The notes below the pieces were generated by a model, which did no database searches, had not been told where the DNA came from, and saw only the letters and a list, made by a program, of their open reading frames with translations. From Pisolithus tinctorius (Eukaryota > Basidiomycota > Agaricomycetes > Boletales > Pisolithaceae), in the NCBI GenBank assembly GCA_024663395.1, contig JANFAH010000038.1, positions 186,001-250,000 on the forward strand: a stretch of DNA of 64,000 bases. Reading direction: 5' to 3'. The position numbers and the translations under genes are program-made. This document shows, piece after piece, positions 2,637 to 26,426 of the stretch (positions are counted from its first letter, which is position 1; every line of letters begins with the position of its first letter).

Positions 2637-2645
2637 GCTACCAGC
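2310..2645 (+). pseudogene. Left part of an unrecognised gene split by the giant KDZ transposon
   Basis: An open frame runs through this stretch and enters the transposon at GCT-ACC-AGC. The same frame resumes after the copy of that 9 bp at 26418. If the transposon and one duplication are removed mentally, the reading frame stays open from 2310 through 26427 to about 26795. That is what insertion into a coding exon would leave. The frame also crosses a copy of the intron-like module described for 1-2636, so the true exon may start later. Product unknown. CpG content is low, as in the rest of the flank. Confidence 0.5.
2637..2645 (+). repeat. Left target-site duplication of the giant KDZ element
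   Basis: GCTACCAGC (plus a shared A) precedes the left terminus and is repeated immediately after the right terminus at 26418-26426. KDZ/Zisupton elements are known for short target duplications of about 8 bp, so 9-10 shared bases fits. The end of the repeat partly overlaps the inverted repeat, so the exact boundary is uncertain by one or two bases. Confidence 0.75.
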
Positions 2646-3369
2646 ACTTCAGGTAACCACTTTTCATAAGCATTTAGGCTGAATAGTTTCTCCAAACCAT
2701 CCAGCCTAATAGCCTCCCAGACCAAGGTCTGCCCAGGGACATCTGGTCATGTCCCAGGGCTATGCAGATTTTTAGGCCCTGGGACAGATGGGATTTCCCA
2801 CATAGCCATCCATTCAAATGCAATTATTTGGGATGTCCCAAGACTGCCTTGGGTGACTGGGGTCCCTACTCCTGAAAGTGCAGCTTATATTAGCATTGAA
2901 ATAGCTGCAGAAATCCTAGCCCCCTTGCTCCTCTGACAGATTTAATCCACAAAGTATCCTTTGACCTATACATCCCCTCCCATCCCACCATGCATAGTAG
3001 TATACAATAGTACTTTTCATGTACATCTTTACAATGTGATTCTGCTGTATTGGGACATCTCACTAGTTGCCATGGAGATGACCCACCTGGGCCTCCACAT
3101 TTGCCTTGAAAATTGCAATAATAAATTCAATCAATTTGTGTCTATACCTCATGCAATTTGTACTGTATGAAGGAAGAAGTGAATGGTTTTTGAACACTTG
3201 TGAGACAAGCCAATATCTCAAAGTCCCCCACATAGAACATGGTGTTGGTCACCTTTGCAACACCATCTGCAGAGGGCAGAATGTCCCAGATGAGCCTCTG
3301 AGGTTGTCATGGGGCATTGTGCTGGTCTGCAAAGGTAGCTTAGGAGGATGTGCCATCATAGCCCTCTGA

Positions 3370-3765
3370 GGCTGGGATGGGACATCCCACTGACTTTCAT
3401 AAGGGGACTTGGGATGTCCCACAGCAGCCTCCAAGGCTACCTTGGGACATCCCACCCTCCCCTTTGCCAACCAGTGGGATGTCCCACAACAGCCTCTAAG
3501 GCTACATTGGGACATCCCACTGTTCCCTCTGCCAACCAGTGGGATGTCCCACAACAGCCTCTAAGGCTATGTTGGGATGTCCCACCCTCCCCTTTGCCAA
3601 GCAGTGGGATGTCCCACAACAGCCTCCAAGCCTACATTGGGACATCCCACCCTCCCCACTGCCAACCAGTGGGATGTCCCCCAACAGCCTCTAAGCCTAC
3701 ATTGGGACATCCCACCCTCCCCTCTGGCAACCAGAGGGATGTCCCAACACAGCCTCTAAGGTGTT
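3370..3765 (+). repeat. Palindromic tandem array L1
   Basis: About six units of roughly 65 bp. Each unit is GGGATGTCCC, then ACAACAGCCTCTAAGGCTAC, then ATTGGGACATCCC, then a C-rich spacer with GCCAACCAGT. The outer decamers are reverse complements of each other and the centre holds AGCCT-CTA-AGGCT, so each unit folds as a nested hairpin. Open frames of 60-140 aa here are by-products of the repeat. Confidence 0.9.
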
Positions 3766-3811
3766 GAAGTAGTAATCTGCACTAATCCTACAAGCACCAT
3801 AGAGAATCCAA

Positions 3812-3896
3812 TGCAAGGTAGCTCCATGGTCAGAGCAGCTGCTTGACACTGAGAGGGTCCTGGCTCAATGCCAGCTCTGGTCACATTTTCATCAGG
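3812..3896 (+). repeat. tRNA-derived SINE-like head 1 (left arm)
   Basis: TAGCTCCATGG at 3820 resembles a pol III A box and GGCTCAATGCC at 3862 a decayed B box, about 40 bp apart as in a tRNA. It is followed by the shared tail CTCTGGTCACATTTTCATCA. It does not form a complete tRNA gene. Confidence 0.6.
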
Positions 3897-4230
3897 TTAT
3901 GAGCTGCAGCTGGAACCCATGCATGCTCAGTACAATGGGTCATGCAGCATCCTTAGTAAGTCCAGATCATGTGAGTTACATGGACACAAGGTGGCTGATA
4001 GTAAGGCCTCCTGGAAACACAGCAGTAAATCCTGATCCATCACATGACACAAGGTCAAAAGGCAATCAGACCATTTGCATGACCCTAGGGGGTGTGCACT
4101 GTTTTTACACTCCAAAAGTGGCCAGATGAAGGGACCACATTGGAGATGGTGCATTCTGTGCATTAACTTCATGGAGATATGTTCCCACAGTGCTAGTCTA
4201 AGCCCCCAAGCTACTGACACTAGTACCCAG

Positions 4231-4320
4231 ACCATATGGCTCAGTGGTTGCAGCACCTGGTAAACACCTAGGAGGTCACTGGTTCAATCTTAGGACTGGT
4301 CACATTTTCCTCATAAGGCT
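4231..4320 (+). repeat. tRNA-derived SINE-like head 2 (left arm)
   Basis: A box-like TGGCTCAGTGG at 4237 and B box-like GGTTCAATCTT at 4281 are followed by the shared tail ACTGGTCACATTTTCCTCAT and then directly by array L2. Confidence 0.65.
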
Positions 4321-4830
4321 ACTTTGGGACATCCCTCCCCCCCTCTGGCAAGCAGTGGGATGTCCCACAACAGCCACTAAAGCTACATTGGGACATCCCT
4401 CCCCCCCTCTGGCAAGCAGTGGGATGTCCCACAATAGCCTCTAAGGCTACATTGGGACATCCCTCCCCCCCTCTGGCAAGCAGTGGGATGTCCCATGACA
4501 GCCTCTAAAGCTACATTGGGACATCCCTCCCCCCCCTCTGGCAAGCAGTGGGATGTCCCACAACAGCCTCTAAGGCTACATTGGGACATCCCTCCCCCCC
4601 TTTGGCAAGTAGTGGGATGTCCCTTGACAGCCTCTAAAGCTACATTGGGACATCCCTCCCCCCCTCTGGCAAGCAGTGGGATGTCCCGTGACAGCCTCTA
4701 AAGCTACATTGGGACATCCCTCCCCCCCTCTGGCAAGTATTGGGATGTCCCACAATAGCCTCTAAAGCTACATTGGGACATCCCCCCCCCTCTGGCAACC
4801 AGTGGGATGTCCCACAGCAGCCTCTGAGCA
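4318..4830 (+). repeat. Palindromic tandem array L2
   Basis: About eight units of the 58-61 bp variant, in which the spacer is TCCCTCCCCCCCTCTGGCAAGCAGT with a variable C run. The hairpin-forming GGGATGTCCC and GGGACATCCC decamers are preserved in almost every unit. Confidence 0.9.
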
Positions 4831-4914
4831 AGTGGGGAATGGTGCATTGCTCTTCACATAGTCTTGTTCCCATGTCACTGGTTTTCCCCCATGCTACTGA
4901 TATTAGTGGCTGGA

Positions 4915-5003
4915 CAATATATATTTGCTCAACTGTTAGAGCACTGGTTATCACCTAAGAGGTTGCTTCAATCCCAGCTCTGGTCACATTTCCATCATAA
5001 GGC
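4915..5003 (+). repeat. tRNA-derived SINE-like head 3 (left arm)
   Basis: A box-like TTGCTCAACTG at 4925 and B box-like GCTTCAATCCC at 4964, then the shared tail CTCTGGTCACATTTCCATCA and a single palindromic unit at about 5003-5040. Confidence 0.6.
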
Positions 5004-5043
5004 TACATTGGGACATCCCACTTCCCCCTCTGGCAACTGGGGA

Positions 5044-5234
5044 TAGTGTTGCTGTGGCTCAGGGAGCTGTCCTAAGCCAAGGGCCATACCACATCTATAT
5101 TATTGAGTATTAAAATAATTATTGTAGATTTGGTATGTGGCAACTCAAGGCTACATTTGGTAATAGTTGTCATAGTGACTAAGCTGCTTGTTGTTGAGCA
5201 GGTCAGCCTTTGGAGCTGAGCCACAGCAACACTA
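5044..5234 (+). mobile_element. 191 bp MITE-like hairpin element in the left arm
   Basis: It starts TAGTGTTGCTGTGGCTCAG and ends with the exact reverse complement, CTGAGCCACAGCAACACTA. The AT-rich centre has no coding capacity. A copy sits at the mirror position in the right arm, so it was present before the arms were duplicated or homogenised. Confidence 0.7.
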
Positions 5235-5297
5235 GCTGAGGCTATGTCCCAGACCACCCTCTTGGGTTATATTGGGTCATCCCACCCCACTCTCCAG

Positions 5298-5385
5298 CAG
5301 ACAGTCCAGTGGTTGTAGCACCTGGTGAACATGTAGGAGGTCACTGGTTCAATCTTAGGACTGGTCACATTTTCCTCATAAGGCT
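5298..5385 (+). repeat. tRNA-derived SINE-like head 4 (left arm)
   Basis: CCAGTGGTTGTAGCACCTGG with B box-like GGTTCAATCTT at 5346 and the shared tail ACTGGTCACATTTTCCTCAT, running straight into array L4. Confidence 0.6.
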
Positions 5386-6135
5386 ACTTTGGGACATCCC
5401 TCCCCCCCCTCTGGCAAGCAGTGGGATGTCCCACAACAGCCTCTAAAGCTGCATTGGGACATCCCTCCCTCCCATCTGGCAAGTAGTGGGATGTCCCACA
5501 ACAGCCTCTAAGGCTACATTGGGACATCCCTCCCCCCCTCTGGCAAGCAGTGGGATGTCCCATGACAGCCTCTAAAGCTACATTGGGACATCCCTCCCCC
5601 CCCTCTGGCAAGCAGTGGGATGTCCCACAACAGCCTCTAAGGCTACATTGGGACATCCCTCCCCCCCTTTGGCAAGTAGTGGGATGTCCCATGACAGCCT
5701 CTAAAGCTACATTGGGACATCCCTCCCCCCCTCTGGCAAGTATTGGGATGTCCCATGTCAGCCTCTAAAGCTACATTGGGACATCCCTCCCCCCTCTCTG
5801 GCAAGCAGTGGGATGTCCCACAACAGCCTCTAAGGCTACATTGGGGCATTCCTTCCCCCCCTCTGGCAACCAGGGGGATGTCCCACAATAGCCTCTAAGG
5901 CTACATTGGGATATCCCTCTCCCCCTCTGGCAACCAGTGGGATGTCCCACAACAGCCTCTGAGGCTACATTGGGGCATCCCACCCTCCCCTTTGCCAACC
6001 AGTGGGATGTCCCACAACAGCCCCTACACCTACATTGGGACATCCCTCCCCACCATCTGGCCAGCAGTGGGATGTCCCACAGCAGCCTCTAAGGCTAAGT
6101 TGGGATGTCCCACCCCCCTGTCTGGCCAGATGTCC
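5385..6135 (+). repeat. Palindromic tandem array L4
   Basis: About a dozen units of the same nested-hairpin repeat. Some decamers are altered (for example GGGGCATTCC near 5842 and GGGATATCCC near 5908), so the array is older or under less homogenisation than L2. Confidence 0.9.
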
Positions 6136-6334
6136 CACACCACTCTCCACATAACACATGGCCAAAATGCTATCAGACCATTTGCATGATCATAGGAGGC
6201 ATGCACCCTTGTTGCACTCCAAAAATTCCCAGATTGAAGGACCATGTTGGAAATGGTGTATTCTGTGCATTGCACTCCACATAGTTTTGTTCCCACATCA
6301 CCGGTCCATGCCCCATGCTACTGATGCTATCACC

Positions 6335-6428
6335 TAGACAATATACACAACTGAGCAGTCAGAGCACCTGGTTAACACCTAAGAGGTTGCTTCAATCCCA
6401 GCTCTGGTCACATTTCCATCATAAGGCT
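6335..6428 (+). repeat. tRNA-derived SINE-like head 5 (left side only)
   Basis: CTGAGCAGTCAGAGCACCTGG followed by B box-like GCTTCAATCCC and the same GGTCACATTTCCATCATAAG tail seen at 4985. The preceding 6140-6300 is a diverged copy of the spacer at 4045-4210. No counterpart is seen in the right arm. Confidence 0.55.
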
Positions 6429-6790
6429 ACATTGGGACATCCCCCCCCCCCTCCAGCAGCCAGTGGGATGTCCCACAACAGCCTCTCAGGCTATGTTGGG
6501 ACATCCCATCCCCCTTCCATACACCTGTGGGATGTCCCACAACAGCCTTTCAGGCTGTGTTGGGACATCCCAACCCCCTTTCCAGCAACCAGTGGGATGT
6601 CCCATGACAGCCTCTCAGGCTATGTTGGGACATCCCATCCCCCTTCCATAAACCAGTGGGATGTCCCACAACAGCCTCTCAGGCTATGTTGGGACATCCC
6701 ATCCCCCCTTCCAGAAACCAGTGGGATGTCCCACAGCAGCCTCTCAGGCTATGTTGGGACATCCCATCTCCCCCTCTGGACACCAGTGAG
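6424..6790 (+). repeat. Palindromic tandem array L5 (left side only)
   Basis: About six units of a distinct subtype with AGCCTCTCAGGCTATGTTGGG in the loop. The outer GGGATGTCCC and GGGACATCCC are intact. The 5' part of the arm uses the CTCTAAGGCTACATT loop instead. Confidence 0.85.
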
Positions 6791-6879
6791 ATGTTATACA
6801 AATGCCACAGAGGCAAATGTTGGACATCCTACCCTGTATCTCTGACATCCACATTGTCCTCTGCCCACAATTGGGATAT

Positions 6880-7720
6880 ATATTGTCACATTGTAACAGG
6901 CTCAATCAATGGCACCAATCAGTTCAAGTCAGATCACCATGATTTTTGGAGATTCAGAATCAGGGCAATGAGACACAGGTCTGCCTTGCAGATGTCCATT
7001 ACACATATAACCAAGATTGTGAGCCCATTATTGCATAATTCTTCACACAAGATTCATATCCTTGAGCCCCACATACTTTCTAGAGAACAGTACCAAAAAA
7101 TATGTGCAGAGATGAAAAGTCAGTGACCAGATGAGCAGTGAGCAGTGAATAACGTGCTCCAAATGACCTATACATATCATTGCTTGAAATAGTCATGGCA
7201 CCCAAAGAATGCTATTCAAATTTTATTTGAAGCAAGTCTTGAGATGTGAGGCAAGGGGACAGGTAGAGGGTAGCACATGATTGGTAAGCAGCCACCATGT
7301 GTAGATAAGACAATACTAGGTGTAGAACTTCAGATCACAACAACACACTGCATAATTGCATATATTTTTGGTACTGTTCTCTAGATGATACACAGGGCTC
7401 CAAGGATATGAATCTTGTGTGAAGAAATATGCAATAATAGGCAAAGTAGAGGGCTCTCTACTGCCCAAAAAAACATTGAAAGCCTGCTGGACAATTGATG
7501 TATAGAAGACCACTATTGGTTTGCTAAGGTGTACAGATGCCTAGATCACTTGCAATTTTGATTGTATATGTGAAATCAGCCTGTGCTTTTTCAGGCTTAT
7601 ATAGTGCTAGAACTAGTCTAATTTTTACACCAGGACCTACATCTAATTTCCCTGATTCTGAATCTGAAAAATTGTGGTGATCTGACTTGAATTGATTGAG
7701 ATATCAAAGTTATAACATTT
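6880..7720. repeat. Long imperfect inverted repeat (fold-back structure)
   Basis: 6905-6990 is inverted against about 7632-7705 (shared TCAAGTCAGATCACCA and GATTCAGAATCAGGG). 7025-7110 is inverted against about 7348-7442 (shared CACAAGATTCATATCCTTG and TAGAGAACAGTACCAAAAA). Together they form a nested stem of roughly 850 bp with a central loop. No coding region is recognised from 6800 to 7960. It could be a fold-back transposon or the remains of one nested in the cargo zone. Confidence 0.6.
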
Positions 7721-8046
7721 AGCTACTACATGTGTGTGATTTTGTTTATTTGGCCTTGCTCTCAGTTTTGAAAATAACTGTAACACGAGGAGCAACAAGG
7801 CACAAACACAGTAGCTAGGACTGCAGGAATTGTATATACAGATTGAGGCATCATCTACAGTGCCTAACAGCAATGGACATGTGATGGACATTGGTACCAT
7901 ATGTGATTTGACCCTGGACCACCCCTAACAAAGAGTTGATAAGTGGCTGGTACTGAAATGTAACAGTAATGGCTGGGGCGACTGACACGAAACTATGGGA
8001 TGCAGTAGAGGACTCCCAGGCAACCAGGGAGAAAGAGGGAAAATGC

Positions 8047-8700: not shown

Positions 8701-8818
8701 TGAGTGGAGAGCCGCAGACTTGTCCCCTGAATCTGATGGTAACATCATCGCTGACACCAGTGACATCAATATACAAGTGGTGCATGACAAATATGTTGTA
8801 GGGGAAGCAAAAACTACA

Positions 8819-11800
8819 CTAGTAGTAATCTTCATTTATATACTCCTCAGCGAAGTTGTCCTCATATTGTGCAGCATTACCCCTGTTGACCCAATGAGGT
8901 TCACCCGACTGGGTTGGAGGGTAGTAGTCATCGGTATATGGACCGTTGTAGTAAGGATGGTTGGTTCGAGACAGAACGCGATGGAATCCTTGGCGAGATG
9001 GAGGAAATTGATTGCGGTGGCCAGAAGGTAATGCCTAGAGAGAATGCAAGTCAACGGTGAAACCTCTGCAAAATCGAATTACTCACATGATATGGGATAT
9101 TAGATGGGCCAGGATCACGATAGTTCGTATGGTCACCCCAAGAATCCTACATAATGTTTCCTTAGTCTTGTTACTGAAGGTCAGAGACCTGGATACTCAC
9201 TTGTCGTCTGGGAAAAGACTGCTGGGCTGGGCCGGCCTCTCGCATGTGAGGACAGCTTGGAAGATTATCCCGATGTAGATCCTATACAACGCTTCATTAG
9301 TCTTGTTATCAGACCATAGGAACCAAACCCTACCCTGTATCGCAGAGCCGGCGCGGGAGGCTCGGATGGGCCAGGCTCTCGAGTGTGCACATTGCTTGGA
9401 ATTGTGGACGGGTCACGACACAAATCTTGCGCAATGGGGCACGCATCCCAGCGTTGATTGTGTGGTGCAGTTCGACGGTCAGACTGTAAAGCCTTGCGAA
9501 CGTCAGCAGATACCGGATATCGAGTAAAGAGCAGAACTTACCTGGGGACCAATAGTATCGCGATTTGATGCCTCCATGCGGGGTCGCTTCCGAGAGGGAA
9601 AAGGGAGTTGTTGCTGCGGTCGGGGTTGTGGCTGTCGAAGGACCTCCATGCCTTGCTGCTGGCGATCCATTTCCTTGAGGGACTTCTGCCACTCTGGATC
9701 ATCTGAGATCTGCCGCAAAACAGTACCATCGGTAGCTTTGACGAGCACGATCTCACCCTTCAAAGGGTCAGCATCCAAAATATCAATGACCTCTACACAG
9801 GACTTCAGCATCCAACTGGATGAATAAAATAGGGAATACCTTTGTTCCAGCACTTAATCTCAATTTCCAGCACATCATCCAGACTATCTTGTTCTTCCTC
9901 ATCATCGGTTTGCCCGTCATACAAAAGACCCAGTTTTCTCCGAAGGTAAGGTACTACAAGTTGACAAAGAGGGCCAGCCTTAAGTTTCTTGTACTCGAAA
10001 CCAGGGCCCGGTGGAGATACACCGTGGGGCCAGTTGACAATAGTGAGGTGGCTCTTCCACAAAAACTCGAGAAGCTGGTGCCAGGAAACTTTCTGGGGAT
10101 CGCCGACTTCAATGCCATGTGTGACTGAGCAAAGGATCAAGATAAATGCACGTACAGCACAAGAATAACTTACTGCGCAGATCTCTCAATGCGGCCAACA
10201 TCTTCTCCTTCATCATGCTTCCGAATACTCTGTGGTTGCGGTCTCTCGGAGTCTCCTTTGTATGGCAACGTAGTTCCAGCGCAGAACCCACATCTCCAAT
10301 GGAACCAGTGCTGGCCACCCTGGCATCCGCACCATCACCATTCCTGAGACACCTACAACAATCCAATGAGGTCGAATGAAACATGCAAGAAATAAACTTA
10401 CTTGAAAATCGCGGTATACTTATCCATGAGTGACCGGACATTGATTCCATTTTCATTGATGAAGTTTCTTATCGTCTCGGAGCCTCCAAATATGCCAGAA
10501 GTTTGACATCCTGCAGGGTCCTGTCCAACATACATTACCGCTCCAACTATCTCAATATCCTCGAGATTGGACCACACCTCCACCTGTGGAACGATGAGAA
10601 TCAATGGCTGCACAGTTGCAACCACATACCAATCCAGAAAATTGTGTCTTTGCATTGTCCACTCTAGCTGCAATAGATTTGACAGATCGGTTAGTCGGTA
10701 CGGCGGAGGAGCTCTCACTCCACTCATAGACGGCTTTTAACCTTTCCCTCCTTGCCGCGAAGTCATCCTTGGGGATGCCTATCATGAGGGTGTTGTACTC
10801 CTTCGTAATCAAATTGTTGATTGAATTTCGATCGGCTGGTCAGGACATTAGAACGGTAGATGTGAGAGGGAGGAAAGCCATACCACCATCTGGTTTGGGC
10901 TGCGTGGCCCAATACCACGAGCGGAAGAGGTTGGCCTCATTAATTTTGGTATGAGAAGCCTTAACACTAAATCCTGCAGCGATGAGTATGTCGCGTGTAG
11001 ACCGCCCGTGCTGTCAGCCAAGTTCTTCCACCATCGTCTTGACGTCCTTCGCAAAAGCACGTATTTCATCTAACGCTGCTGTGGACAGATTCCCCGGCTT
11101 CTTGAGGTTCGGGAGTTGGGTGTCATGGTCACTGTGGTTTGCAGCATCAATGTCCTCAGCATCTATAGCCCTACCTTTGCCCTTCTTCTGAAGTCTAGTA
11201 TAGATCGGGCCACCTTCTTGGCGAGGATGGACAACGTCCCCTACAGGATGGGCAGAGTCATCAGACTCGTACGTGGGTGGCGAGGACGGGGGAAGCAGGG
11301 ACTGGGCACAAGAAACGGTCTGAGCATTGCAAGCGTGTGCATCATCACCATCTAGGAGTCAACATGTCAACACGAGGTAGATGTGTATATAGATGGTAAC
11401 AGAACAGGATCGCAACAATTCTTTATCTATATAACAACCAAGGGAATGATGGGCGGCAGGAAACGGTCACGAGTATCCAAAGCACCAAGCTTTGAAACAC
11501 AAGTGGGCACCAAGCACACCATCGCATGACCAGAGAGGCACCAAACCCCGAAATCAAAAGAAATGAGAATTATCTGAAAAAAACGTGAGAGAACGAGGGA
11601 TACGAAACGGAAGAACCTACTACAGGAGTCACTCGAGCTCTCCGTCTCCTTGTCATCATTCTCATTCTCATTGTAATCGGAACCCTTGTTGTCATCATCG
11701 CTACCAGGCAGCCGGTCATCCTCTTTCTCACTACCGGACGGCAGGTCATCCTCGTTCTCGCTACCAGACAGCTGATCATCCTCGTTCTCGTTACTGGAAG

Positions 11801-12271
11801 GCTGGTCATCCTCGTTTTTGTTGTTGTCAAGATTCTCCGCCACCTCCTCCATTCCAGAGTCCTCATCATGGATTTGGTCGTCCAGGCACAGGGAAGGGGA
11901 AGGGAGTGTTGGGGTGTTTGCGATGGAAGGACGAGGTGTCAAGGAGCGTCTTCTATCTCTCAGGCCAAACATGTGCTCTTCCCAGCCTTCGGGAGGCTGG
12001 ACTGCACGCCACGGTTTCGGTTTGCCAATCATATCCTTCGGAGTAGATTGCCGTGAGCAGAAAACGATGTTAGAGTAATGGATGAGAAATATACAAGACG
12101 TACCTCTGAGTGTTGCACTCCATCATTAGAGACAACAGCACCACCTTTTTTTACTCGTTTGGAAACTGGGGCATTTTGTGAGGACGGAATCCTTCGGTTG
12201 CGAAGAACACGAGTGTTCAAGTCGGCAATGGAGTCCCTCGAAGGCTCCAGGATATCAGCAGAGCGGGGCAT
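8819..12271 (-). pseudogene. Cargo gene 1: large multi-exon gene of unknown function with one in-frame TGA
   Basis: Start ATG at 12269-12271 (upstream in-frame ATG at 12305-12307 possible), stop TAG at 8819-8821. Phase-consistent exons include 12104-12271; 12035 down to about 11626; 11351 down to about 10893; then exons ending near 10657 and 10402; 10352 to about 10177; about 10115 to 9838; about 9793 to 9541; and three to four short 3' exons. The protein has a basic N-terminus, an acidic low-complexity block of NEDDQ/SGSEKEDD type, a conserved-looking SWYWATQPKPDG segment, several globular exons, and a Tyr/Asn-rich tail ending INEDYY. No domain is recognised. A single TGA at 11014-11016 interrupts an otherwise open exon; CGA would restore an Arg codon. 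Codon use and CpG content are high, unlike the arms. Function unknown; likely a passenger or accessory gene of this transposon family. Confidence 0.6.
11460..11547 (-). repeat. Double-hairpin repeat remnant inside cargo gene 1 intron
   Basis: Read on the minus strand it contains CGGGGTTTGGTGCC, GCTTGGTGCCC and AAAGCTTGGTGCTTT. These are the signature pieces of the repeats at 12907, 14418, 15094 and 15366. It falls in the region between the acidic exon and the next coding exon of cargo gene 1. Confidence 0.4.
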
Positions 12272-12309
12272 GGTTGTATGGGGGTGTTGAGAAACAGGGG
12301 GAGGCAAGG

Positions 12310-15365: not shown

Positions 15366-15449
15366 CCAAACGTTCGGAGCGTTTGTCTGCCAAGTGCTCT
15401 GGGGTTTGGTGCCTCGTGAGTTCTCAATAGGCTTGGGGCCTATCGAGGG
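15366..15449 (+). repeat. Double-hairpin repeat, copy 4 (inverted)
   Basis: AAACGTTCGGAGCGTTT stem-loop, GGGGTTTGGTGCC, then CTCAATAGGCTTGGGGCC with TATCGAG closing. It lies about 120 bp upstream of the start of cargo gene 3. Confidence 0.6.
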
Positions 15450-15569
15450 CAACATTCTCGTTTCATTTCAGTTACACCGGCCTTAACGCTGCATGATTCA
15501 TTTTTTTCTCCCCTCGTTGTCATCTCTGTCAATTTAAGTAAGTACTGACTGACTTCTTTTGTTTCCAGG

Positions 15570-17809
15570 ATGAATGTAGCTAGCATTCGCCCTTATGAAT
15601 TATCATTGCACAACTGCCCTGGTGACGGTGCGTTCTCGCTGTCCCTAACTCAGCTCAAATTGATTATCATTATTTTCAGGTAGATGGGGTGCATTTGATG
15701 CGCACGTCCTAGCGAAGTGTGACGACCACTGGATCATGTCGCCGAACGCTGACTATATTCCCCAACCCTTCATCTTTGATGGAGAAACAATCATGCCCCT
15801 ACGCGATGGACGGTTCGGCCATATAGACTGTTTTCAATGGCCACAGTTGTTCGCAGAACACTACACATGGAGTCCGTGTGTCCCTCGGAAAGTGGCCTAT
15901 GGAGACGACCCAACATGGAAGTGGCTGTGGTGGAACGTTACCCAGTCAGCAGAAGATTTTGTGCTGGAAAGAGGGTCTGCCTTCAAAGTTGGCAGGATTC
16001 ATGCCGACAAGTGGAAGTCAATGGAGACCATTTATAATTGACTAGACGAATGTTTGCAAGGTTGGCTAAACAAGCACCCCCACTACAAAGGTCCTCTGAG
16101 ACCTGACTCATGGCTGGGGTCATGTTGGCGATGTCTCCTGCATCTGAAGGTATGATTTTTTTCTGGTTCAGATTTCGTTAATTAAAATTTTCTCTAGCAA
16201 CTCCCATTTATGTTTCGAGACACAGTCATATTGGTCGCTTTTTGTCAATGCCTCCTCCTAGACATCTTTGGCATGCTAGAATATCTGGACACAGACCTTG
16301 ACCCTGCTACAGGCACTTTCGTTGATTCATTTGACCACTGGATCGGGGCATTCACGACAGACCCCGACATTTGCCAGTGCCTTTTCGAAATATGTGTGCC
16401 TGTCTGGATGGTCTGGAAACCTGATCGTGTACCCCCAGACATGCAAGTGTCGAAGACTGTCGAGATTACGCGCCCTCATGACATAGTCATGGATCCTGAG
16501 GTTTTTGAGGTCGGGCAGATGCTGAAATGGCACAGCGCCTGGTACCACCCTGGTGAATTGCGCCACAGGCACACTCAACAAGGCCCGGCGATTGGGCTCA
16601 AGCAATTTGCAGTTCCCTGGCCGGAACTGCCACGCACCAGCAGTGGTGTGGCCTCGACTCCCACAAGCATGGGTCCCATGGCTTCCAATGCTGCAAGTTC
16701 CAGTGGTGCAAGTTCAAGTACGGGAGCTGTTAGGACGGGCAGGGCTCGACAATGTAATCAGCCATGTACATATCCTATTCATTTTGTCTCAGTGTGTTTA
16801 ACATTTTGCTCAGATCCCCCTGCGGGCTCGAAAGGAGCCAAGCCATCGGTCGTTCTGAATCCCGAACTGTGGGAAGACCTCGGCAATCCAGCTATTCCCC
16901 CTGCTATGTCCGCATGGCATGCTGCCCTGAAGGACATGAATAAGGATGCAAAAAGGGTTAGTCCCAACGCGCCAAAGGTAGCTTACTTCTTTCCCAGCCC
17001 GAGTCTGTTTGTGAGGGGCAAGTCCTCCGATTGCCAGCAGAGGTACCTGAGGAATTGGCTAGTCTCTCGAGCAGGTTGGATCACTTGTCTTTCTGCCTCG
17101 GATGTGTCTCCTGTTATCCCTCGGTCCTGGTGGGATTTCCTGAACACAATTCCCAAGCAGATTTCATCCACATTTTCCGGCGACCGACTATGTGAATCTG
17201 CCACCCTCTTTGGTCCCGAGCTCGTCAGCCTCCAACACGACATACCTAGCCATGTACAATTCCGGGATATTTCAATTTCCCTTGCAGACCTCGCTACCAT
17301 CGATCAGATGACGAAAAGCAAGATTTTATGGGATTTATATGAACACAACTTCTGGTTCGAGTTGGTCACTCTTGACCGTGTGATGATGCCTAGCTTGTGG
17401 TCAAATCGGGATTCAGAGCGGCTCAATCATGTCCGGCAGGTACGTACAATTTTACCTCACCAGGAATGCGCTGTTTCTGAACTCTACGCAGATTTTCCCT
17501 GGTGATTCGGAACTCACCATGTGTGCTGAGCCTTTCCCTCAGCAAAATCAAGGCCTTGGCTCGTCCGACTTTCAATCGAAATGGGAGTATGTAGAGAAGC
17601 TCTGAGCGTTACTTGCTGTATGGCCAGGATGCCCCTCAGACTTGGCGGAGCCAATTATGCCATTAGCATCATCGTTGCGTGTCTGGGCAATGGAAAAGAA
17701 GTTGGCTATATTTTATGTACAGTCGTTCTTTGATACTTTTGGTCGTCCGCCCCTTCTTCCCCACCTTATTCCAACTGCACCGCAGGGTTACAGTTCAAAT
17801 AGTCAGTAA
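15570..17809 (+). pseudogene. Cargo gene 3: five-exon gene of unknown function with two in-frame TGAs
   Basis: Exons 15570-15627, 15680-16149, 16198-16753, 16814-17439 and 17492-17809 join in phase and end at TAA 17807-17809, giving a protein of about 675 aa. Visible features are an N-terminal NCPGDGRWGAF segment, a Trp-rich region with FGHIDCFQWPQLF and CVPRKVAYGDDPTW, and a Ser/Ala-rich linker before exon 4. I recognise the general look of a gene repeated in Agaricomycete genomes but no named domain. TGA codons at 16039-16041 and 17603-17605 interrupt the frame, and in both CGA would fit. It sits upstream of, and in the same direction as, the transposase. Confidence 0.6.
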
Positions 17810-18131
17810 CCTCCTTCATCATTCCCCAATACCATTTTTACTCTGTACGTTTCCTGAACGATATTCGTAGCACGCCGCAATTGCAATCTCATTTTGTTCA
17901 TTGCACACTTGCTCTGTCTCTTTCCCCATCGCCCTCGCTAGTCATGTGCAAAGGTCAGTTCGCTTTTCTATGCTGGAGGCTAACTATTGGAGATGTGCTG
18001 GTGGCATCTTGGGGTTGCCTTCCAGCAACCAGGATTCGGTGTCCTGGTCACAGTCCTGTAACTTGGTGTTGCAGGATCGTTGTCTACCACTAACTCGCCT
18101 AGACAGTTTATGCGTCTGACCGATTTCATAG

Positions 18132-21100
18132 ATGTCTTTTCGTCGACCGAAACAGCTTACTAGGCATGGTCCCTCTGTACGAGTTACCGCCCCAATGAAC
18201 CAGATTCCTGACTCGCTCCGTGTGGATGATCTCGCAGTCCTTGTTGACCATCAGACTGCTGAACCTTCGCACTGTGTTCCTGGAACTGCGGGGCTTTACC
18301 TTCCTGTTGAGCACTTGCTCACCTTACCTGGCCATTGCGCTTTCACACAACACCCCAGTGATTCCTCCGACCCCCACATCCAACGCTGCTCTGCTTCAAG
18401 CACTGCTCGCCCGTTAGAGCCTTCTGCGGGTAGTGAATGTGACCTCTCCCATGATGCCGCTTTCAACCGCTTAACTGATGGGCTACATATTAGCCAAGAC
18501 CCGCTCCTGTCACCGTCTAGGAATGCCTGAAAAAAAATGAAGCAGTGGCAGCGGTGGTCGCACACTGTCATCCCTTCCCTCCTTCAGCTGTACCTTGCAT
18601 ATCAACGACTATCCAACCACTTCCGGAATCCTGTTGACTACGAACTGCCAATGTGTGGTTGTCACCAGACTCGAAAGCTGAGAGTCATTTGCATTGATTT
18701 CAATGGTGAGATTTCTGTGTTCTTCGTCATTTTCCTCTGCTTAGATGCATTCATGGCAGCTCTGCAATCAGTTGATCTGGCTGTCTGTCCTTGTGCACCT
18801 GCAGCCCTCCAACTCCTTTGGATGGGCTACTTTCCCTGTGCCCCACTGGGGCCAACACTTGCTGTTAGCCTACAGCTTCTCAGCTTTGTCCGACAACTCT
18901 TCATGCGCATACCTCCAAACACTTCAGCATGGTGTGAGTCCCTTGAGGCATACCTTGCAGCTATGGGTTATAAGGTGGACACAAAGGTATGGAATTGTCA
19001 TGTTTTGTATCATTACCCCATTTTTTCCACTTCATAAAACATACATTACTGCCATAGTGACTGTAGTACAGATGACTCTGCTATGTAGGTAGTATATCTT
19101 AATCTGATGCATGACTATTTCATGGTTATAAGTGCATGCATGTGTGACATGTTCTGTTTCTTGGGACTGCTGTAGTGTTATATTGATAGGGTAGGATGTT
19201 TGTTGGTATTGTTTGTGGTGATGTTGCTATATTATTAATGCATACTTTGGTTGTTCTTCTCAGTCATGGATCATTGCTGATGATACTTGCGGGAGGGTAT
19301 ATGCCGGAGGTTCAGTAATGCATATCACTGGTATTGTATTCTGGAAACATCCCTTGATGAATATGTCCAACAACAACTGCAAGAATCTGCTAGTCCACCA
19401 TCAAACATCCCCTCTGCAATCCCATTGCCAAGTTCCTCAGACAATGATGTCTTCAGTTCAAAGATGAGGCCATCAGAATACCTACAACAGCGTTGTCCTT
19501 TATGCTTTGGTGGCCAGAGCTGGCAGAACAATAATAGTGAACATGGGTATGTCACTTGGTGGATATAGTTTTGTCAACTGCTAAAATTTCCTTTGTTCTA
19601 GCTTTTCTGATGTTGATGCAATTGTTTGCATTGATGCTTGTTTTACTCAGAAGCGCAGAGGTGGGCATCCAGATGATCCAGTAAACCCTACAGCTACAGT
19701 CTTTCTTTCACAAGAAGATATTTGTGCTATGGAGCATGAGGTTAATGAGTTGCAAAAGTCAAAGTCTTCAACCCAAAGGAGGAGTGGACAGGCTTTGAAA
19801 AAGAATTATCTTGGTGATGGGGAGGATGAGTTTGAAGAGGGAATGAGGATAACAATGTCAGTGCTGAAGGGTTGTAATGAGTCCTTTACTGCAGCTGATG
19901 AGAGGCGCCAGAAAGTGAGTCTTAATCATTTATTCTGACTCCATTGGTCTGATGGCAGTGTAGGCAAGTACCCAGTTCTTTTCAGATACTGGTGTCATGG
20001 CCCTACTCTGTCGTCATGATTGTGTCATTTACCTTGCAAATATGACTTCAGCTGGGGAGAGGCAACATTATGCACTTGCCCTCATCAAATCTCTTTTTGG
20101 CCATCTCCCAGATAATTTTCGTATTGGGCTGTTATATGACATAGGTTGTCAACTGGAACAGAGCTGCAGGAAGTGGGGTTTTCTCAAGTCATTTCTGCCA
20201 CGTATTTCTTTTGCCATCTCAGTATTTCATGCCTTTGGTCATCAATGGGCATGTCAGCTTATCTATCACCCCCAAAAATGTGAAGGATTTGGGCTATCTG
20301 ATGGAGAGGGATGTGGGCATTTTTGGAGTTCAGTCAAAGGGCTGATACCATCTCTTCGTGTTTCTGGGGTATGTGTGCAGTATGCCACATCTGTTTCAAG
20401 CTAACATATTATTCAGTATCATCAACGCCTCTTTGTTATTGACTTCCAGGTGTGCCACCTGGACATGAAGAGTCTCACTGGTTTGGGCCAGTGGCTTTTG
20501 CGTCGCTGGAATCATTGCCAAGAAAAGAAGGCTGCTGCAAACAGAGGCCTAAGGAGATGTGGAGTTGATATCCCAACTCTTCAAGCTGAATGGGTTGCTC
20601 AAGTCTCTGCACAGACAAAGCCAGCTCCTCGTAAGCTGCTGATATAAATAATGACTCCTGCTCACCATCAAATTAGGTCACAGCTCTAAAGCTGCTGAGA
20701 ATATGATATTGCAAATCATGGCAACTCAGAAATCATTGGCAAATTATGAGGCCAAGCTAGAAGTGCTGGAGAAAGATCTTCTCCATGGGGTTGCTGACAT
20801 GACAAGCTTGAATATCCAAATTGCAGAGTGTCATCAAAAGGTTAAGTGTTTTAAAGAAGCTTTGCAGAACCAGAGGGCAACCCTAGGCATAAATGGGCAT
20901 TCAAATCTTGCTAGTATCCAAAAGAGTGCTTATCTTCAAGTTAGTGGCAGTGTATTTTCTACATGGTTTCATCTAATTGAGACCATGTTCCATAGCTTCG
21001 CATGCATGCATTAGCAATCAAGAAATGTATCAGAGATCGTCTGCGCCAACGAAAGTTTGAGTTGGAAAGACTGGAATGCTCATATCGGCAGACTCTCAGT

Positions 21101-22000
21101 GGTAAGAGGTCATCATTCATGAATACCCTTGTATTTGACTTGCCTTGAAGAACAAAGACTTCAAAACCACACAGAAGCATCTGTGAAGCGACGAGAACCA
21201 GGAATAGCCAAGCTTGCCAGTAGCTACAATAATTTGTGTCTGCAAATTGTAGGCCTCATACACAAGGGAAAAGCTCCTCAGGGGTCAATAGCCCCACTCC
21301 TGATTCCAAGGGACTCTGTGTTCAAACTGGATGTGGATGATGATATTTGGCAGGATATTGGCCTTGGGGATGATTCAGATGGGTTACTACCCCCATGGTT
21401 AGCTGATGAAAAAGTGCGCTCAGGGATCAGATCACTCCTTGAGCTGAGGCGTTGTGAAGAAGAGGAAAGGCGCCTGTTGCAGGAAAGAAGAGCTTTGACA
21501 GAGTGGTTTTCTGAAGAGTGGGGTTGTGTGCAGAAAACCAGACAGAGTGCTGGTAAGAGACATGTGTCATTGCATTACCATGACTAACACACATTGCAGA
21601 TGTTGATCTTGCATATGAACTTGACTGCAGAGCATTGAGACTAGCAGGTTTGTGCATCTTGTGGAAGAGGCAACTTAGAGGCTATCCTGGAACACCTAAT
21701 GAGAACTGGGGTGCAAGTGATGAAGAACTGCACAGCATGGTGCAGGGTGGTCATGTTATATATATTGATGGTGATAATGAGGAGAGGTTTGATGGATTGG
21801 AGTCAGAGGGTGAAGAGGATGAGGATGAAGTGATGGATGATGAGTTGCTATGTGTTGCTGAAGAATTTGCCCTGGCAGATGAATATCACCAACAAAGTGA
21901 TATGCCATTGGAAGAATTCTGTTGGGGAGAAGAATGGGAGAATGACCTACTGGATATGGATCCACCATCATCTCCAAGTAAAAGAGTTCGATACAGATAA
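18132..22000 (+). pseudogene. KDZ (Kyakuja-Dileera-Zisupton) transposase with CxC1-type cysteine cluster
   Basis: Catalyses movement of the surrounding element. ATG 18132, stop TAA 21998-22000. Phase-consistent exons: 18132-18705, 18745-18986, about 19293-19546, 19602-19914, 19964-20368, 20417-20630, 20677 to about 20940, 20996-21101, 21151-21552, 21600-22000. Domains in order: N-terminal low-complexity region; QWQRWSHTVIPSLL and a Cys cluster (CGCHQTRK, CPCAPAA, PCAP) like CxC1; a CPLCFGG knuckle; first catalytic region VCIDACF (Asp at 19633); DTGVMALLCRHD; YDIGCQLE; HAFGHQWACQ and DGEGCGHFWSS with the Glu; then a coiled-coil C-terminal half with RKFELERLE and LPPWLADE and an acidic tail. 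One TGA at 18528-18530 lies in frame six bases before ATG 18537, so the N-terminus is either cut off by a nonsense change or translation starts at 18537. The splice into 19293 is not clean and may hide a frameshift. Confidence 0.85.
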
Positions 22001-22109
22001 GGGTGATAGAGACAAATTATAATCTATTTGGTGTCTTTAAATAGAATGTTTTTTGAGCATCATGTTTGCAAGACATATGCATGGGTAAAATGTAGAATAT
22101 CCTGCTGGT

Positions 22110-23560
22110 TGGCAGAGGGGTAGGTGGGATGTCCCAATGTAGCCTTAGGGGCTGTTGTGGGACATCCCACTGCTTGGCAAAGGGGAGGGTGGGACATCCC
22201 AATGTAGCCTTAGAGGCTGTTGTGGGACATCCCACTGCTTGCCAGAAGGGGGGAGGGATGTCCCAATGTAGCCTTACAGGCTGTTGTGGGACATCCCACT
22301 GGTTGGCAAAGGGGAGGGTGGGATGTCCCAATTTAGCCTTAGAGGCTGTTGTGGGACATCCCACTGCTTGCCTAAGGGGAGGGTGGGACATCCCAATGTA
22401 GCCTTAGAGGCTGTTGTGGGACATCCCACTGCTTGCCAGAGGGGGGGGAGGGATGTCCCAATGTAGCTTTAGAGGCTGTCAAGGGACATCCCACTGCTTG
22501 CCAGAGGGGGGGAGGGATGTCCCAATGTAGCCTTAGAGGCTGTTGTGGGACATCCCACTACTTGCCAGAGGGGGGGGAGGGACATCCCAATGTAGCCTTG
22601 GAGGCTGTTGTGGGACATCCCACTGCTTGCCAGAAGGGGGGAGGGATGTCCCAATGTAGCCTTAGAGGCTGTTGTGGGACATCCCACTGGTTGGCAAAGG
22701 GGAGGGTGGGATGTCCCAATTTAGCCTTAGAGGCTGTTGTGGGACATCCCACTGCTTGCCAGAGGGGGGGGAGGGATGTCCCAATGTAGCTTTAGAGGCT
22801 GTCAAGGGACATCCCACTGCTTGCCAGAGGGGGGGAGGGATGTCCCAATGTAGCCTTAGAGGCTGTTGTGGGACATCCCACTACTTGCCAGAGGGGGGGG
22901 AGGGATGTCCCAATGTAGCCTTAGAGGCTGTTGTGGGACATCCCACTGCTTGCCAGAGGAGGGGGAGGGATGTCCCAATGTAGCTTTAGAGGCTGTCATG
23001 GGACATCCCACTGCTTGCCAGAGAGGGGGAGGGATGTCCCAATGTAGCTTTAGAGGCTGTCAAGGGACATCCCACTGCTTGCCAGAGGGGGGGAGGGATG
23101 TCCCAATGTAGCCTTAGAGGCTGTTGTGGGACATCCCACTACTTGCCAGAGGGGGGGGAGGGATGTCCCAATGTAGCCTTAGAGGCTGTTGTGGGACATC
23201 CCACTGCTTGCCAGAGGAGGGGGAGGGATGTCCCAATGTAGCTTTAGAGGCTGTCATGGGACATCCCACTGCTTGCCAGAGAGGGGGAGGGATGTCCCAA
23301 TGTAGCCTTAGAGGCTGTTGTGGGACATCCCACTGCTTGCCAGAGGAGGGGGAGGGATGTCCCAATGTAGCTTTAGAGGCTGTCATGGGACATCCCACTG
23401 CTTGCCAGAGAGGGGGAGGGATGTCCCAATGTAGCTTTAGAGGCTGTCATGGGACATCCCGCTGCTTGCCAGAGGGGGGGAGGAATGTCTCAATGTAGCC
23501 TTAGAGGTTATTACTTGCCAGAGGGGGGGAGGGATGTCCCAAAGTAGCCTTATGAGGAAA
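22110..23560 (-). repeat. Palindromic tandem array R1 (longest array)
   Basis: More than twenty units of the nested-hairpin repeat in reverse orientation. Blocks of several units are themselves repeated (about 22440-22680 against 22745-22985, and 23010-23170 against 23250-23400). The array has therefore grown by multi-unit duplication. Long open frames on both strands are repeat artefacts. Confidence 0.9.
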
Positions 23561-23633
23561 ATGTGACCAGTCCTAAGATTGAACCAGTGACCTCCTACAT
23601 GTTCACCAGGTGCTACAACCACTGGACTGTCTG
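23547..23633 (-). repeat. tRNA-derived SINE-like head 4 (right arm)
   Basis: Reverse-complement partner of the head at 5298-5385, with the same GGTTCAATCTT B box and GGTCACATTTTCCTCATAAG tail. Confidence 0.6.
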
Positions 23634-23696
23634 CCAGAGAGTGGGGTGGGATGACCCAACATAACCCAAGAGGGTGTTCTGGGACATAGCCTCAGC

Positions 23697-23888
23697 TAGT
23701 GTTGCTGTGGCTCAGCTCCAAAGGCTGACCTGCTCAACAACAAGCAGCTTAGTCACTATGACAACTATTACCAGATGTAGCCTTGAGTTGCCACATACCA
23801 AATGCACAATAATTATTTTAACACTCAATAATATAGATGTGGTATGGACCTTGGCTTAGGACAGCTCCCTGAGCCACAGCAACACTAG
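23697..23888 (-). mobile_element. MITE-like hairpin element in the right arm
   Basis: Inverted copy of the 191 bp element at 5044-5234, with the same TAGTGTTGCTGTGGCTCAG termini. Small differences exist inside (for example CCAGATGTAGCC against CCAAATGTAGCC). Confidence 0.7.
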
Positions 23889-23927
23889 CCCCAGCTGCCA
23901 GAGGGGGAAGTGGGATGTCCCAATGTA

Positions 23928-24015
23928 GCCTTATGATGGAAATGTGACCAGAGCTGGGATTGAAGCAACCTCTTAGGTGATAACCAGTGCTCTAAACAGT
24001 TGAGCAAATATATAT
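23928..24015 (-). repeat. tRNA-derived SINE-like head 3 (right arm)
   Basis: Reverse-complement partner of 4915-5003, with the same GCTTCAATCCC and CTCTGGTCACATTTCCATCA. Confidence 0.6.
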
Positions 24016-24109
24016 TGTCTAGGTACTAATATCAGTAGCATGGGGGAAAACCAGTGACATGGGAACAAGACTATGTGAAGAGCAATGCACCATTCCCCAC
24101 TTGCTCAGA

Positions 24110-24612
24110 GGCTGCTGTGGGACATCCCACTGGTTGCCAGAGAGGGGGGGGATGTCCCAATGTAGCCTTAGAGGCTGTTGTGGGACATCCCACTGCTTGC
24201 CAGAGGGGGGGGAGGGATGTCCCAATGTAGCTTTAGAGGCTATCATGGGACATCCCACTGCTTGCCAGAGAGGGGGAGGGATGTCCCAATGTAGCTTTAG
24301 AGGCTGTCAAGGGACATCCCACTACTTGCCAGAGGGGGGGAGGGATGTCCCAATGTAGCCTTAGAGGCTGTTGTGGGACATCCCACTGCTTGCCAGAGGG
24401 GGGGAGGGATGTCCCAATGTAGCTTTAGAGGCTGTCATGGGACATCCCACTGCTTGCCAGAGGGGGGGAGGGATGTCCCAATGTAGCCTTAGAGGCTATT
24501 GTGGGACATCCCACTGCTTGCCAGAGGGGGGGAGGGATGTCCCAATGTAGCTTTAGTGGCTGTTGTGGGACATCCTACTGCTTGCCAGAGGAGGGGAGGG
24601 ATGTCCCAAAGT
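24110..24612 (-). repeat. Palindromic tandem array R3
   Basis: Right-arm counterpart of array L2, about eight units. Confidence 0.9.
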
Positions 24613-24702
24613 AGCCTCATGAGGAAAATGTGACCAGTCCTAAGATTGAACCAGTGACCTCCTAGGTGTTTACCAGGTGCTGCAACCACTGAGCCATATG
24701 GT
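24612..24702 (-). repeat. tRNA-derived SINE-like head 2 (right arm)
   Basis: Reverse-complement partner of 4231-4320. It is almost unchanged, including the A box-like TGGCTCAGTGG and B box-like GGTTCAATCTT. Confidence 0.65.
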
Positions 24703-25041
24703 CTGGGTACTAGTGTCAGTAGCTTGGGGGCTTAGACTAGCACTGTGGGAACATATCTCCATGAAGTTAATGCACAGAATGCACCATCTCCAATGTGGTC
24801 CCTTCATCTGGCCACTTTTGGAGTGTAAAAACAGTGCACACCCCCTAGGGTCATGCAAATGGTCTGATTGCCTTTTGACCTTGTGTCATGTGATGGATCA
24901 GGATTTACTGCTGTGTTTCCAGGAGGCCTTACTATCAGCCACCTTGTGTCCATGTAACTCACATGATCTGGACTTACTAAGGATGCTGCATGACCCATTG
25001 TACTGAGCATGCATGGGTTCCAGCTGCAGCTCATAACCTGA

Positions 25042-25121
25042 TGAAAATGTGACCAGAGCTGGCATTGAGCCAGGACCCTCTCAGTGTCAAGCAGCTGCTC
25101 TGACCATGGAGCTACCTTGCA
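25042..25121 (-). repeat. tRNA-derived SINE-like head 1 (right arm)
   Basis: Reverse-complement partner of 3812-3896, with TAGCTCCATGG and GGCTCAATGCC retained. Confidence 0.6.
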
Positions 25122-25174
25122 TTGGATTCTCTATGGTGCTTGTAGGATTAGTGCAGATTACTACTTCAACACCT

Positions 25175-25700
25175 TAGAGGCTGTGTTGGGACATCCCTCT
25201 GGTTGCCAGAGGGGAGGGTGGGATGTCCCAATATAGCCTTAGAGGCTGTTGTGGGACATCCCACTGGTTGGCAAAGGGGAGGGTGGGATGTCCCAATGTA
25301 GGCTTAGAGGCTGTTGGGGGACATCCCACTGGTTGGCAGTGGGGAGGGTGGGATGTCCCAATGTAGGCTTGGAGGCTGTTGTGGGACATCCCACTGCTTG
25401 GCAAAGGGGAGGGTGGGACATCCCAACATAGCCTTAGAGGCTGTTGTGGGACATCCCACTGCTTGGCAGAGGGAACAGTGGGATGTCCCAATGTAGCCTT
25501 AGAGGCTGTTGTGGGACATCCCACTGGTTGGCAGAGGGAACAGTGGGATGTCCCAATGTAGCCTTAGAGGCTGTTGTGGGACATCCCACTGGTTGGCAAA
25601 GGGGAGGGTGGGATGTCCCAAGGTAGCCTTGGAGGCTGCTGTGGGACATCCCAAGTCCCCTTATGAAAGTCAGTGGGATGTCCCATCCCAGCCTCAGAGG
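25175..25700 (-). repeat. Palindromic tandem array R4
   Basis: Right-arm counterpart of array L1. It carries about two more units than L1, an unequal copy number between otherwise matching arms. Confidence 0.9.
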
Positions 25701-26417
25701 GCTATGATGGCACATCCTCCTAAGCTACCTTTGCAGACCAGCACAATGCCCCATGACAACCTCAGAGGCTCATCTGGGACATTCTGCCCTCTGCAGATGG
25801 TGTTGCAAAGGTGACCAACACCATGTTCTATGTGGGGGACTTTGAGATATTGGCTTGTCTCACAAGTGTTCAAAAACCATTCACTTCTTCCTTCATACAG
25901 TACAAATTGCATGAGGTATAGACACAAATTGATTGAATTTATTATTGCAATTTTCAAGGCAAATGTGGAGGCCCAGGTGGGTCATCTCCATGGCAACTAG
26001 TGAGATGTCCCAATACAGCAGAATCACATTGTAACGATGTACATGAAAAGTACTATTGTATACTACTATGCATGGTGGGATGGGAGGGGATGTATAGGTC
26101 AAAGGATACTTTGTGGATTAAATCTGTCAGAGGAGCAAGGGGGCTAGGATTTCTGCAGCTATTTCAATGCTAATATAAGCTGCACTTTCAGGAGTAGGGA
26201 CCCCAGTCACCCAAGGCAGTCTTGGGACATCCCAAATAATTGCATTTGAATGGATGGCTATGTGGGAAATCCCATCTGTCCCAGGGCCTAAAAATCTGCA
26301 TAGCCCTGGGACATGACCAGATGTCCCTGGGCAGACCTTGGTCTGGGAGGCTATTAGGCTGGATGGTTTGGAGAAACTATTCAGCCTAAATGCTTATGAA
26401 AAATGGTTACCTGAAGT

Positions 26418-26426
26418 GCTACCAGC
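26418..26426 (+). repeat. Right target-site duplication of the giant KDZ element
   Basis: GCTACCAGC directly after the right terminus, identical to 2637-2645. The next base A is also shared. Confidence 0.75.

What the first reader, a model, noticed from the sequence alone, without database searches (positions are those of the whole stretch)
2637..26426. Complete 23.8 kb KDZ transposon with target-site duplication, giant composite arms and cargo
Seen: GCTACCAGC(A) on both sides, matching ACTTCAGGTAACCA termini, multi-kb inverted arms, and a KDZ transposase between them. Known: KDZ elements exist in fungi and make short target duplications. Inference: this is a whole cargo-carrying KDZ element, structurally comparable in ambition to Starships but driven by a different enzyme. 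I am not aware of a described KDZ element with this arm architecture.
Basis: partly seen in the sequence, partly recalled or inferred. Interest (0 to 1): 0.88.

Follow-up and report, generated by a model that had tools for sequence, protein, structure and literature searches.

The report
KDZ jumping gene with foldback arms
A fungal genome holds a large family of "jumping genes", many about 20 thousand letters long, whose ends are long mirror-image arms packed with one repeated short sequence; the copy reported here is real and once moved, but it does not look like a vehicle for foreign cargo genes.

Summary
Window 2645-26418 (23,774 bp) is one copy of a KDZ transposon in Pisolithus tinctorius. 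It has 5'-CACTTCAGG..CCTGAAGTG-3' ends, a 7-bp target duplication (CTACCAG, not 9 bp), and an uninterrupted homologous site on another contig with one CTACCAG. The genome holds 194 matching termini; those listed pair into 49 copies, 25 of them 18-25 kb. Of 27 copies with both flanks read, 17 have an exact 7- or 8-bp duplication.

"Cargo" is not supported. Besides the KDZ transposase there are two genes of unknown function, under purifying selection between two subfamilies and found on the same contigs as KDZ genes in other Pisolithus species. The one giant copy opened (43.6 kb) holds a nested LTR retrotransposon.

The arms are not described in what I read. They are 4.2 and 4.4 kb, nearly CpG-free, and hold 62 and 76 copies of GGGAYRTCCC about 32 bp apart, with none in the core. 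I read them as arrays of protein-binding sites, as proposed for Galileo, a Foldback-like element. Short gene-less derivatives, some palindromic, also moved. The lineage (Kyakuja or other) was not tested by a tree. A new structural variant of a known superfamily.

The parts
2638..2644 (.). left target-site duplication CTACCAG
   Evidence: one copy at the empty site L065
26419..26425 (.). right target-site duplication CTACCAG
2645..26418 (+). whole element, 23,774 bp, CACTTCAGG..CCTGAAGTG
2645..3760 (+). outer collinear terminal inverted repeat, left (27 differences in 1116 bp from the right one; only 2 in the first 920)
25303..26418 (-). outer collinear terminal inverted repeat, right
2645..6800 (+). 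left arm: 65-bp tandem units with 62 GGGAYRTCCC sites, 2 CpG
22001..26418 (-). right arm: 65-bp tandem units with 76 GGGAYRTCCC sites, 2 CpG
8819..12271 (-). gene 1, multi-exon, relative P0003 of 889 aa, no Pfam family; function unknown
15680..17800 (+). gene 2 (limits approximate), relatives P0107/P0108 of 678/723 aa; no Pfam family in P0107 (P0108 was not scanned); function unknown; this copy has an in-frame TGA at 16039-16041
18030..22000 (+). KDZ transposase gene (5' end uncertain: relative P0144 matches from 18243; this copy has a TGA at 18528)
18765..18956 (+). CxC1 cysteine cluster PF18802
   Evidence: E 9e-9
19615..20368 (+). KDZ transposase domain PF18758 in two exons
   Evidence: E 2e-7 and 6e-44

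Best explanation
A cut-and-paste DNA transposon of the KDZ superfamily, with three conserved genes and Foldback-type ends. Shown: the anatomy, the 7-bp (sometimes 8-bp) target duplication, the empty site, low divergence between two long copies outside CpG, and purifying selection on all three genes. Inferred: the KDZ transposase, perhaps with gene 1 or gene 2 products, assembles on arrays of the GGGAYRTCCC site. The site is repeated about every 32 bp (three helical turns, so on one face of DNA) in the two arms; the ends are brought together and the element is cut out and inserted. Short gene-less copies keep the ends and part of the array and would be moved in trans.
For: PF18758 and PF18802 in the core. 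194 termini, 0 for the reversed pattern. 49 pairs among the listed termini: 25 of 18-25 kb, 15 under 8 kb, 3 of 8-18 kb, 6 over 25 kb. Exact 7-8 bp duplication in 17 of 27 copies. Empty site with flanks 99.1% and 98.7% identical over 1640 and 1638 bp. A second long copy, 97.5% identical over 15,981 aligned bases of the core, with its own duplication TCGGTTC. dN/dS between window and C165 copies 0.22 (KDZ), 0.21 (gene 1), 0.11 (gene 2, one exon, dS saturated); shifted frames give pN/pS 1.05-1.52. Sites: 62+76 in the arms, 0 in the core, 0 elsewhere in the window; 121 of the 127 gaps under 100 bp are 31-33 bp, and 111 of 122 neighbours 30-35 bp apart differ in orientation. In the A subfamily, whose unit spacer matches in 28 of 45 positions, both sites are kept. 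Gene-less short copies with duplications.
Against: No binding or transposition was tested. 10 of 27 copies lack an exact duplication, among them the C165 copy used for comparison. The units compared were picked by the first site, so only the second (10 of 10) is an unbiased test. Structure models of genes 1 and 2 are poor (mean pLDDT 47 and 42), and no fold match was significant for gene 1, so their role is a guess. The two subfamilies share only about 120-140 bp of end sequence at blastn level. The window copy's transposase and gene 2 carry stops, so this copy is probably not autonomous.
Confidence: 0.6

Rival explanations
1. The arms are ordinary satellite growth inside a transposon end: the 65-bp units expand by slippage and unequal exchange and have no function; only the outer ~150 bp is needed.
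For: Only about 120-140 terminal bp are shared at blastn level between the two subfamilies. Site numbers vary widely (42 in C165, 115 in C2, 138 in the window copy, 139 in C1); the 1.4-kb copy L039 has only 3. Tetris in Drosophila shows that foldback arms can seed satellites (PMC4079207, abstract and outline).
Against: The second 10-bp site is kept exactly in both subfamily consensus units while the spacer diverged; spacing stays mostly at 31-33 bp; both arms keep an array in the four long copies analysed.
Confidence: 0.3
2. A cargo-carrying giant mobile element like a Starship, with the extra genes picked up from the host.
For: Large size; genes 1 and 2 match no Pfam family in the P. tinctorius relatives scanned.
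Against: Same genes, order and orientation in two diverged subfamilies; purifying selection; by equal contig length, relatives of gene 1 share contigs with KDZ relatives in Pisolithus and Rhizopogon, and those of gene 2 in Pisolithus; the one giant copy opened holds a nested retrotransposon.
Confidence: 0.04
3. The inverted arms, or the whole palindromic copies, are assembly artefacts.
For: L049 has flanks that are reverse complements of each other; L052 is a whole-length palindrome without a duplication.
Against: 49 paired copies on many contigs; similar arm structure in the four long copies analysed; 17 exact duplications, two of them on whole-length palindromes (L040, L048). No raw reads were at hand.
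Confidence: 0.03

Closest known systems
KDZ1, KDZ2, KDZ3 of Cryptococcus neoformans (PMC12810828, passages read)
   Same: KDZ transposase with CxC1, TIRs, duplications of 4-8 bp, whole elements shown to insert
   Different: 9-11 kb with TIRs of 139-241 bp; long arms or site arrays do not appear in the passages read; 2-5 full-length copies in the isolates described
TET+ Kyakuja families of Agaricomycetes (PMC12730594, parts 1-3 of 7 and the legends read)
   Same: 7-bp target duplication, 5'-CA..TG-3' ends, Agaricomycetes including Boletales
   Different: the two described first have no TIRs, and all carry TET/JBP; here giant TIRs, and no Tet_JBP hit in the listed paired copies
Galileo, a Foldback-like element of Drosophila (PMC3688188, abstract and outline)
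   Same: unusually long TIRs with tandem repeats; multiple transposase binding sites found along the arm
   Different: Galileo belongs to the P superfamily, not KDZ; insects
Tetris foldback transposon (PMC4079207, abstract and outline)
   Same: TIRs with internal tandem repeats; shares only the ends of its TIRs with another element
   Different: apparently non-autonomous, 220-bp units, transposase not known
Starships (recalled, no call)
   Same: large fungal mobile element
   Different: Starships use a tyrosine recombinase and carry variable cargo (recalled)

Membership tests
KDZ superfamily | KDZ transposase domain PF18758 | tested here: met
   window; P. tinctorius relative P0142, E 3e-61
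KDZ superfamily | CxC cysteine cluster before the transposase domain | tested here: met
   PF18802
KDZ superfamily | target duplication within the range reported for fungal KDZ elements (4-8 bp) | tested here: met
   15 copies with 7 bp, 2 with 8 bp and 10 with none of 27; range
Kyakuja lineage | 7-bp duplication and CA..TG ends (as for TET+ Kyakuja in PMC12730594) | tested here: met
   criterion
Kyakuja lineage | no TIRs (as reported for Kyakuja-1_LB and -2_LB) | tested here: not met
   TIRs of about 1.1 kb (window, C2) and 231 bp (C165); it is not certain that this defines the lineage, and I do not file the element as Kyakuja
Kyakuja lineage | transposase grouping with Kyakuja in a tree | not tested
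   no labelled reference sequences were at hand
Zisupton lineage | 8-bp target duplication | tested here: not met
   15 of 17 exact duplications are 7 bp, 2 are 8 bp
TET+ transposons | TET/JBP dioxygenase inside the element | tested here: not met
   of the 150 Tet_JBP matches scored (186 candidates), 0 lie inside the 49 paired copies (compared by eye); the divergent PE type of PMC12730594 may escape this model
Foldback/Galileo-type architecture | long TIRs with internal tandem repeats | tested here: met
   palindromic gene-less relatives also present
Galileo (P superfamily) | P-type transposase with THAP domain | tested here: not met
   the transposase is KDZ
Starship | tyrosine-recombinase captain gene (recalled) | tested here: inconclusive
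   no such Pfam hit among the 20 ORFs scanned; 76 ORFs of 90 aa or more overlap the stretch
Starship | variable cargo between copies (recalled) | tested here: not met
   collinear core in the three long copies compared; nested LTR element in the fourth; the other long copies were not read

The most novel reading that the evidence does not exclude
A three-component KDZ transposition system whose ends are almost CpG-free docking tracks: dozens of identical sites, mostly in alternating orientation and three helical turns apart, that CpG methylation cannot mark and CpG decay cannot erode. Gene 1 or gene 2 would be the docking protein, and palindromic one-end derivatives would exploit the tracks.
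Probability: 0.25. Interest if true: 0.8.

Novelty: new variant of a known kind. Interest (0 to 1): 0.62.

Why it matters
KDZ transposons are widespread in mushroom-forming fungi, yet in the papers I read few complete elements are described. This gives a complete, recently spread family with clear ends, target duplications and an empty site. It shows that Foldback-type arms also occur with a KDZ enzyme, adds two conserved companion genes without a Pfam family, and offers a strong candidate DNA site that can be tested directly. The arms hold almost no CpG while the core is losing CpG by mutation, which makes the family a natural test of how transposon ends behave under DNA methylation.

Tried and rejected

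Origin of the palindromes: both halves of L053 follow the right arm of the window copy for 2101 bp but the left for 1120; both halves of L046 follow the left arm further (1318 and 1393 bp) than the right (1123). This suggests inverted duplication of one end rather than plain internal deletion, but gene conversion between arms is not excluded. L047 does not fit: one half follows the left arm for 1488 bp, the other either arm for 284 bp only. L052 is undecided.
Full report
HOST. The name is an inference from those lengths; the tool itself gives none.

BOUNDARIES. A 34-base terminus is found 194 times in the 92.5-Mb genome with up to 3 mismatches, 103 forward and 91 reverse, and 0 times for the pattern read backwards. 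59 have A and 69 have T at base 16 with no other mismatch, and 9 match the window's left end exactly; the remaining 57 were not listed. Base 16 is only a rough subfamily label: C3:226208 carries A but is 99% identical to the window's end over 356 bp. Pairing neighbouring listed termini (137, plus one right end) that face each other within 60 kb gave 49 copies: 25 of 18-25 kb, 15 below 8 kb, 3 of 8-18 kb, 6 above 25 kb, 848,527 bp in all. Copies with an unlisted end are missed. For 27 copies both flanks were read: 15 have an exact 7-bp duplication, 2 an exact 8-bp one, 10 none; 3 of the 27 (L043, L045, L051) have the same 20-bp flanks as another. Among 702 mismatched pairings 4 had 7 or more, all between members of duplicated loci.

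EMPTY SITE. A query of the joined flanks matched C52:254424-254691 over its whole length at 99%. L065 1-1640 equals window 1007-2646 at 99.1%, and 1631-3268 equals window 26418-28055 at 98.7%; there is one CTACCAG at the junction. The flanks belong to a repeated sequence: 34 matches in all, of which 31 are other places at 72-93%. The insertion point is therefore shown; allelism is not.

GENES. A splice-aware comparison of the window copy with the C165 copy (about 70-81% identical in the aligned pieces of the core) found three collinear genes. dN/dS is 0.22 for KDZ (756 codons), 0.21 for gene 1 (572) and 0.11 for gene 2 (408 codons of the exon 16198-17439; dS 3.19 is saturated); pN/pS in shifted frames is 1.05-1.52. 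Gene 1 had 104 relatives among the 7998 candidates scored, gene 2 35 among 5864, KDZ 953 among 6084 (120 listed). The named sources of the gene 1 and gene 2 relatives are Pisolithus species, Scleroderma, Paxillus and, for gene 1, Rhizopogon. By equal contig length, gene 1 and gene 2 share at least ten contigs outside P. tinctorius (391217, 344112, 280434, 457042, 405922, 240470, 2023801, 1414671, 372037, 5050126; all Pisolithus except 1414671, Scleroderma yunnanense), two of which also hold a listed KDZ relative (391217, 240470). Further contig lengths hold gene 1 and KDZ (e.g. 14793, Rhizopogon vinicolor; 552097, P. croceorrhizus) or gene 2 and KDZ (e.g. 1115821, P. microcarpus; 305854, P. 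marmoratus). I read these from the tables, and equal length is taken as the same contig; linkage in Paxillus was not seen. In P. tinctorius the 41 gene-2 clusters that I drew (65 of 269 candidates scored there) include 28 inside paired copies, 9 within 25-26 kb inward of an unpaired listed end, and 4 neither; 28 of 34 copies over 10 kb have one, 0 of 15 shorter copies.

STATE OF THE COPIES. The window copy has in-frame TGA codons at 16039 (gene 2) and 18528 (upstream part of the KDZ gene) where the C2 copy has CGA, and two changed residues in the DGEGCERFW stretch shared by C2 and C165. C2 in turn has single-base insertions relative to the other two, and the C165 copy has a stop in its KDZ domain. 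Window and C2 cores differ at 306 of 15,250 positions; 290 are transitions and 263 lie at CpG. The rate is 0.219 at CpG and 0.003-0.005 at other C. The remaining 43 differences (0.28%) point to recent spread; the CpG bias points to decay of methylated CpG (inference).

ARMS. GGGAYRTCCC occurs 62 times in 2645-6800, 76 times in 22001-26418, and nowhere else in the window. Of 127 gaps under 100 bp, 121 are 31-33 bp. The two forms GGGATGTCCC (68) and GGGACATCCC (69; one site is GGGATATCCC) are reverse complements, so one directional site mostly alternates in orientation: 111 of 122 neighbours 30-35 bp apart differ (88 of 98 in C2, 28 of 34 in C165, 107 of 118 in C1). Both could also have come from the palindrome GGGACGTCCC by loss of its CpG (speculation; that form occurs 0 times in these four copies). 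The pair of sites occurs 1579 times in the genome, 0 for the pattern read backwards; only the first rows were listed, all on C1, and five of their six clusters lie beside listed termini. CpG: 2 in the left arm, 2 in the right (o/e 0.01 each), against o/e 0.40 in 6801-8800, 0.76 in the intergenic stretch 12272-15500 and 0.29-0.73 in the genes. C2 has 0 in either arm, C165 0 and 1, C1 1 and 4; five short copies have 1 to 40 (o/e 0.01-0.11), so they are less clean. TpG+CpA is raised in the arms (1.42-1.49) but also in the KDZ gene (1.45), so old CpG decay explains part of it; whether selection keeps the arms CpG-poor is open.

SHORT COPIES. All 15 paired copies under 8 kb have the T base at both ends. 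In 11 of the 12 compared, the outer arms are 98.2-99.9% identical to each other, over 285 to 3501 bp (L050: 95.6%). L040, L048 and L052 are palindromes over their whole length.

LARGEST COPY OPENED. C1:496228-539868 (43,641 bp, exact duplication GAGTTGG) is an A-type element with about 21.4 kb inserted in gene 1. The insert has 655-bp direct terminal repeats at 99.4% and long ORFs that read like Ty3/gypsy polyproteins (by eye, no family search), so it is taken as an LTR retrotransposon with further nesting. C24:529393-573889 (44,497 bp) was not opened.

LITERATURE. Searches were run on an open-licence library. Read: PMC12730594 (parts 1-3 of 7 and legends), PMC12810828, PMC12510652, PMC7641404, PMC9297572 and PMC10066745 (passages), PMC4079207 and PMC3688188 (abstract and outline). 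None of what I read describes a KDZ element with multi-kilobase arms. Iyer et al. 2014, which first defined KDZ (recalled), was not held.

CONFIDENCE. Real KDZ element and family: about 0.97. Three-gene module rather than cargo: about 0.9. Arms as binding arrays: about 0.55.

Noticed in passing
window 36047-45194: Second inverted-repeat element: arms 36046-37326 / 43917-45196 (1.28 kb, 95.9%), ends TATGGC..GCCATA, likely 6-bp duplication CACGAG; these fit the IS3EU criteria in PMC12730594. An ORF at 42905-44743 + matches Myosin_head (PF00063, E 3e-45), perhaps a captured gene.
   Followed up: partly
window 30735-32510: Tandem array of a unit of about 129 bp, copies about 93% alike.
   Followed up: no
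window 58465-58695 and 62758-62988: Direct repeat of 231 bp, 97.4% identical, possibly the two ends of a small LTR element; no 5-bp duplication at the positions tried.
   Followed up: partly
L049 (C9:185467-190664): The 20 bases on either side of this short copy are exact reverse complements of each other: either a larger palindrome or an assembly fold.
   Followed up: no
whole genome G000: 150 Tet_JBP matches scored (186 candidates), nearly all over the family cut-off, none inside the 49 paired copies; some lie close by, e.g. C6:772548, about 700 bp outside a copy.
   Followed up: partly
L041/L043, L044/L045, L050/L051: Pairs of contigs with the same short copy and the same 20-bp flanks, so the assembly seems to hold some regions twice, either as alleles or as duplications.
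   Followed up: no
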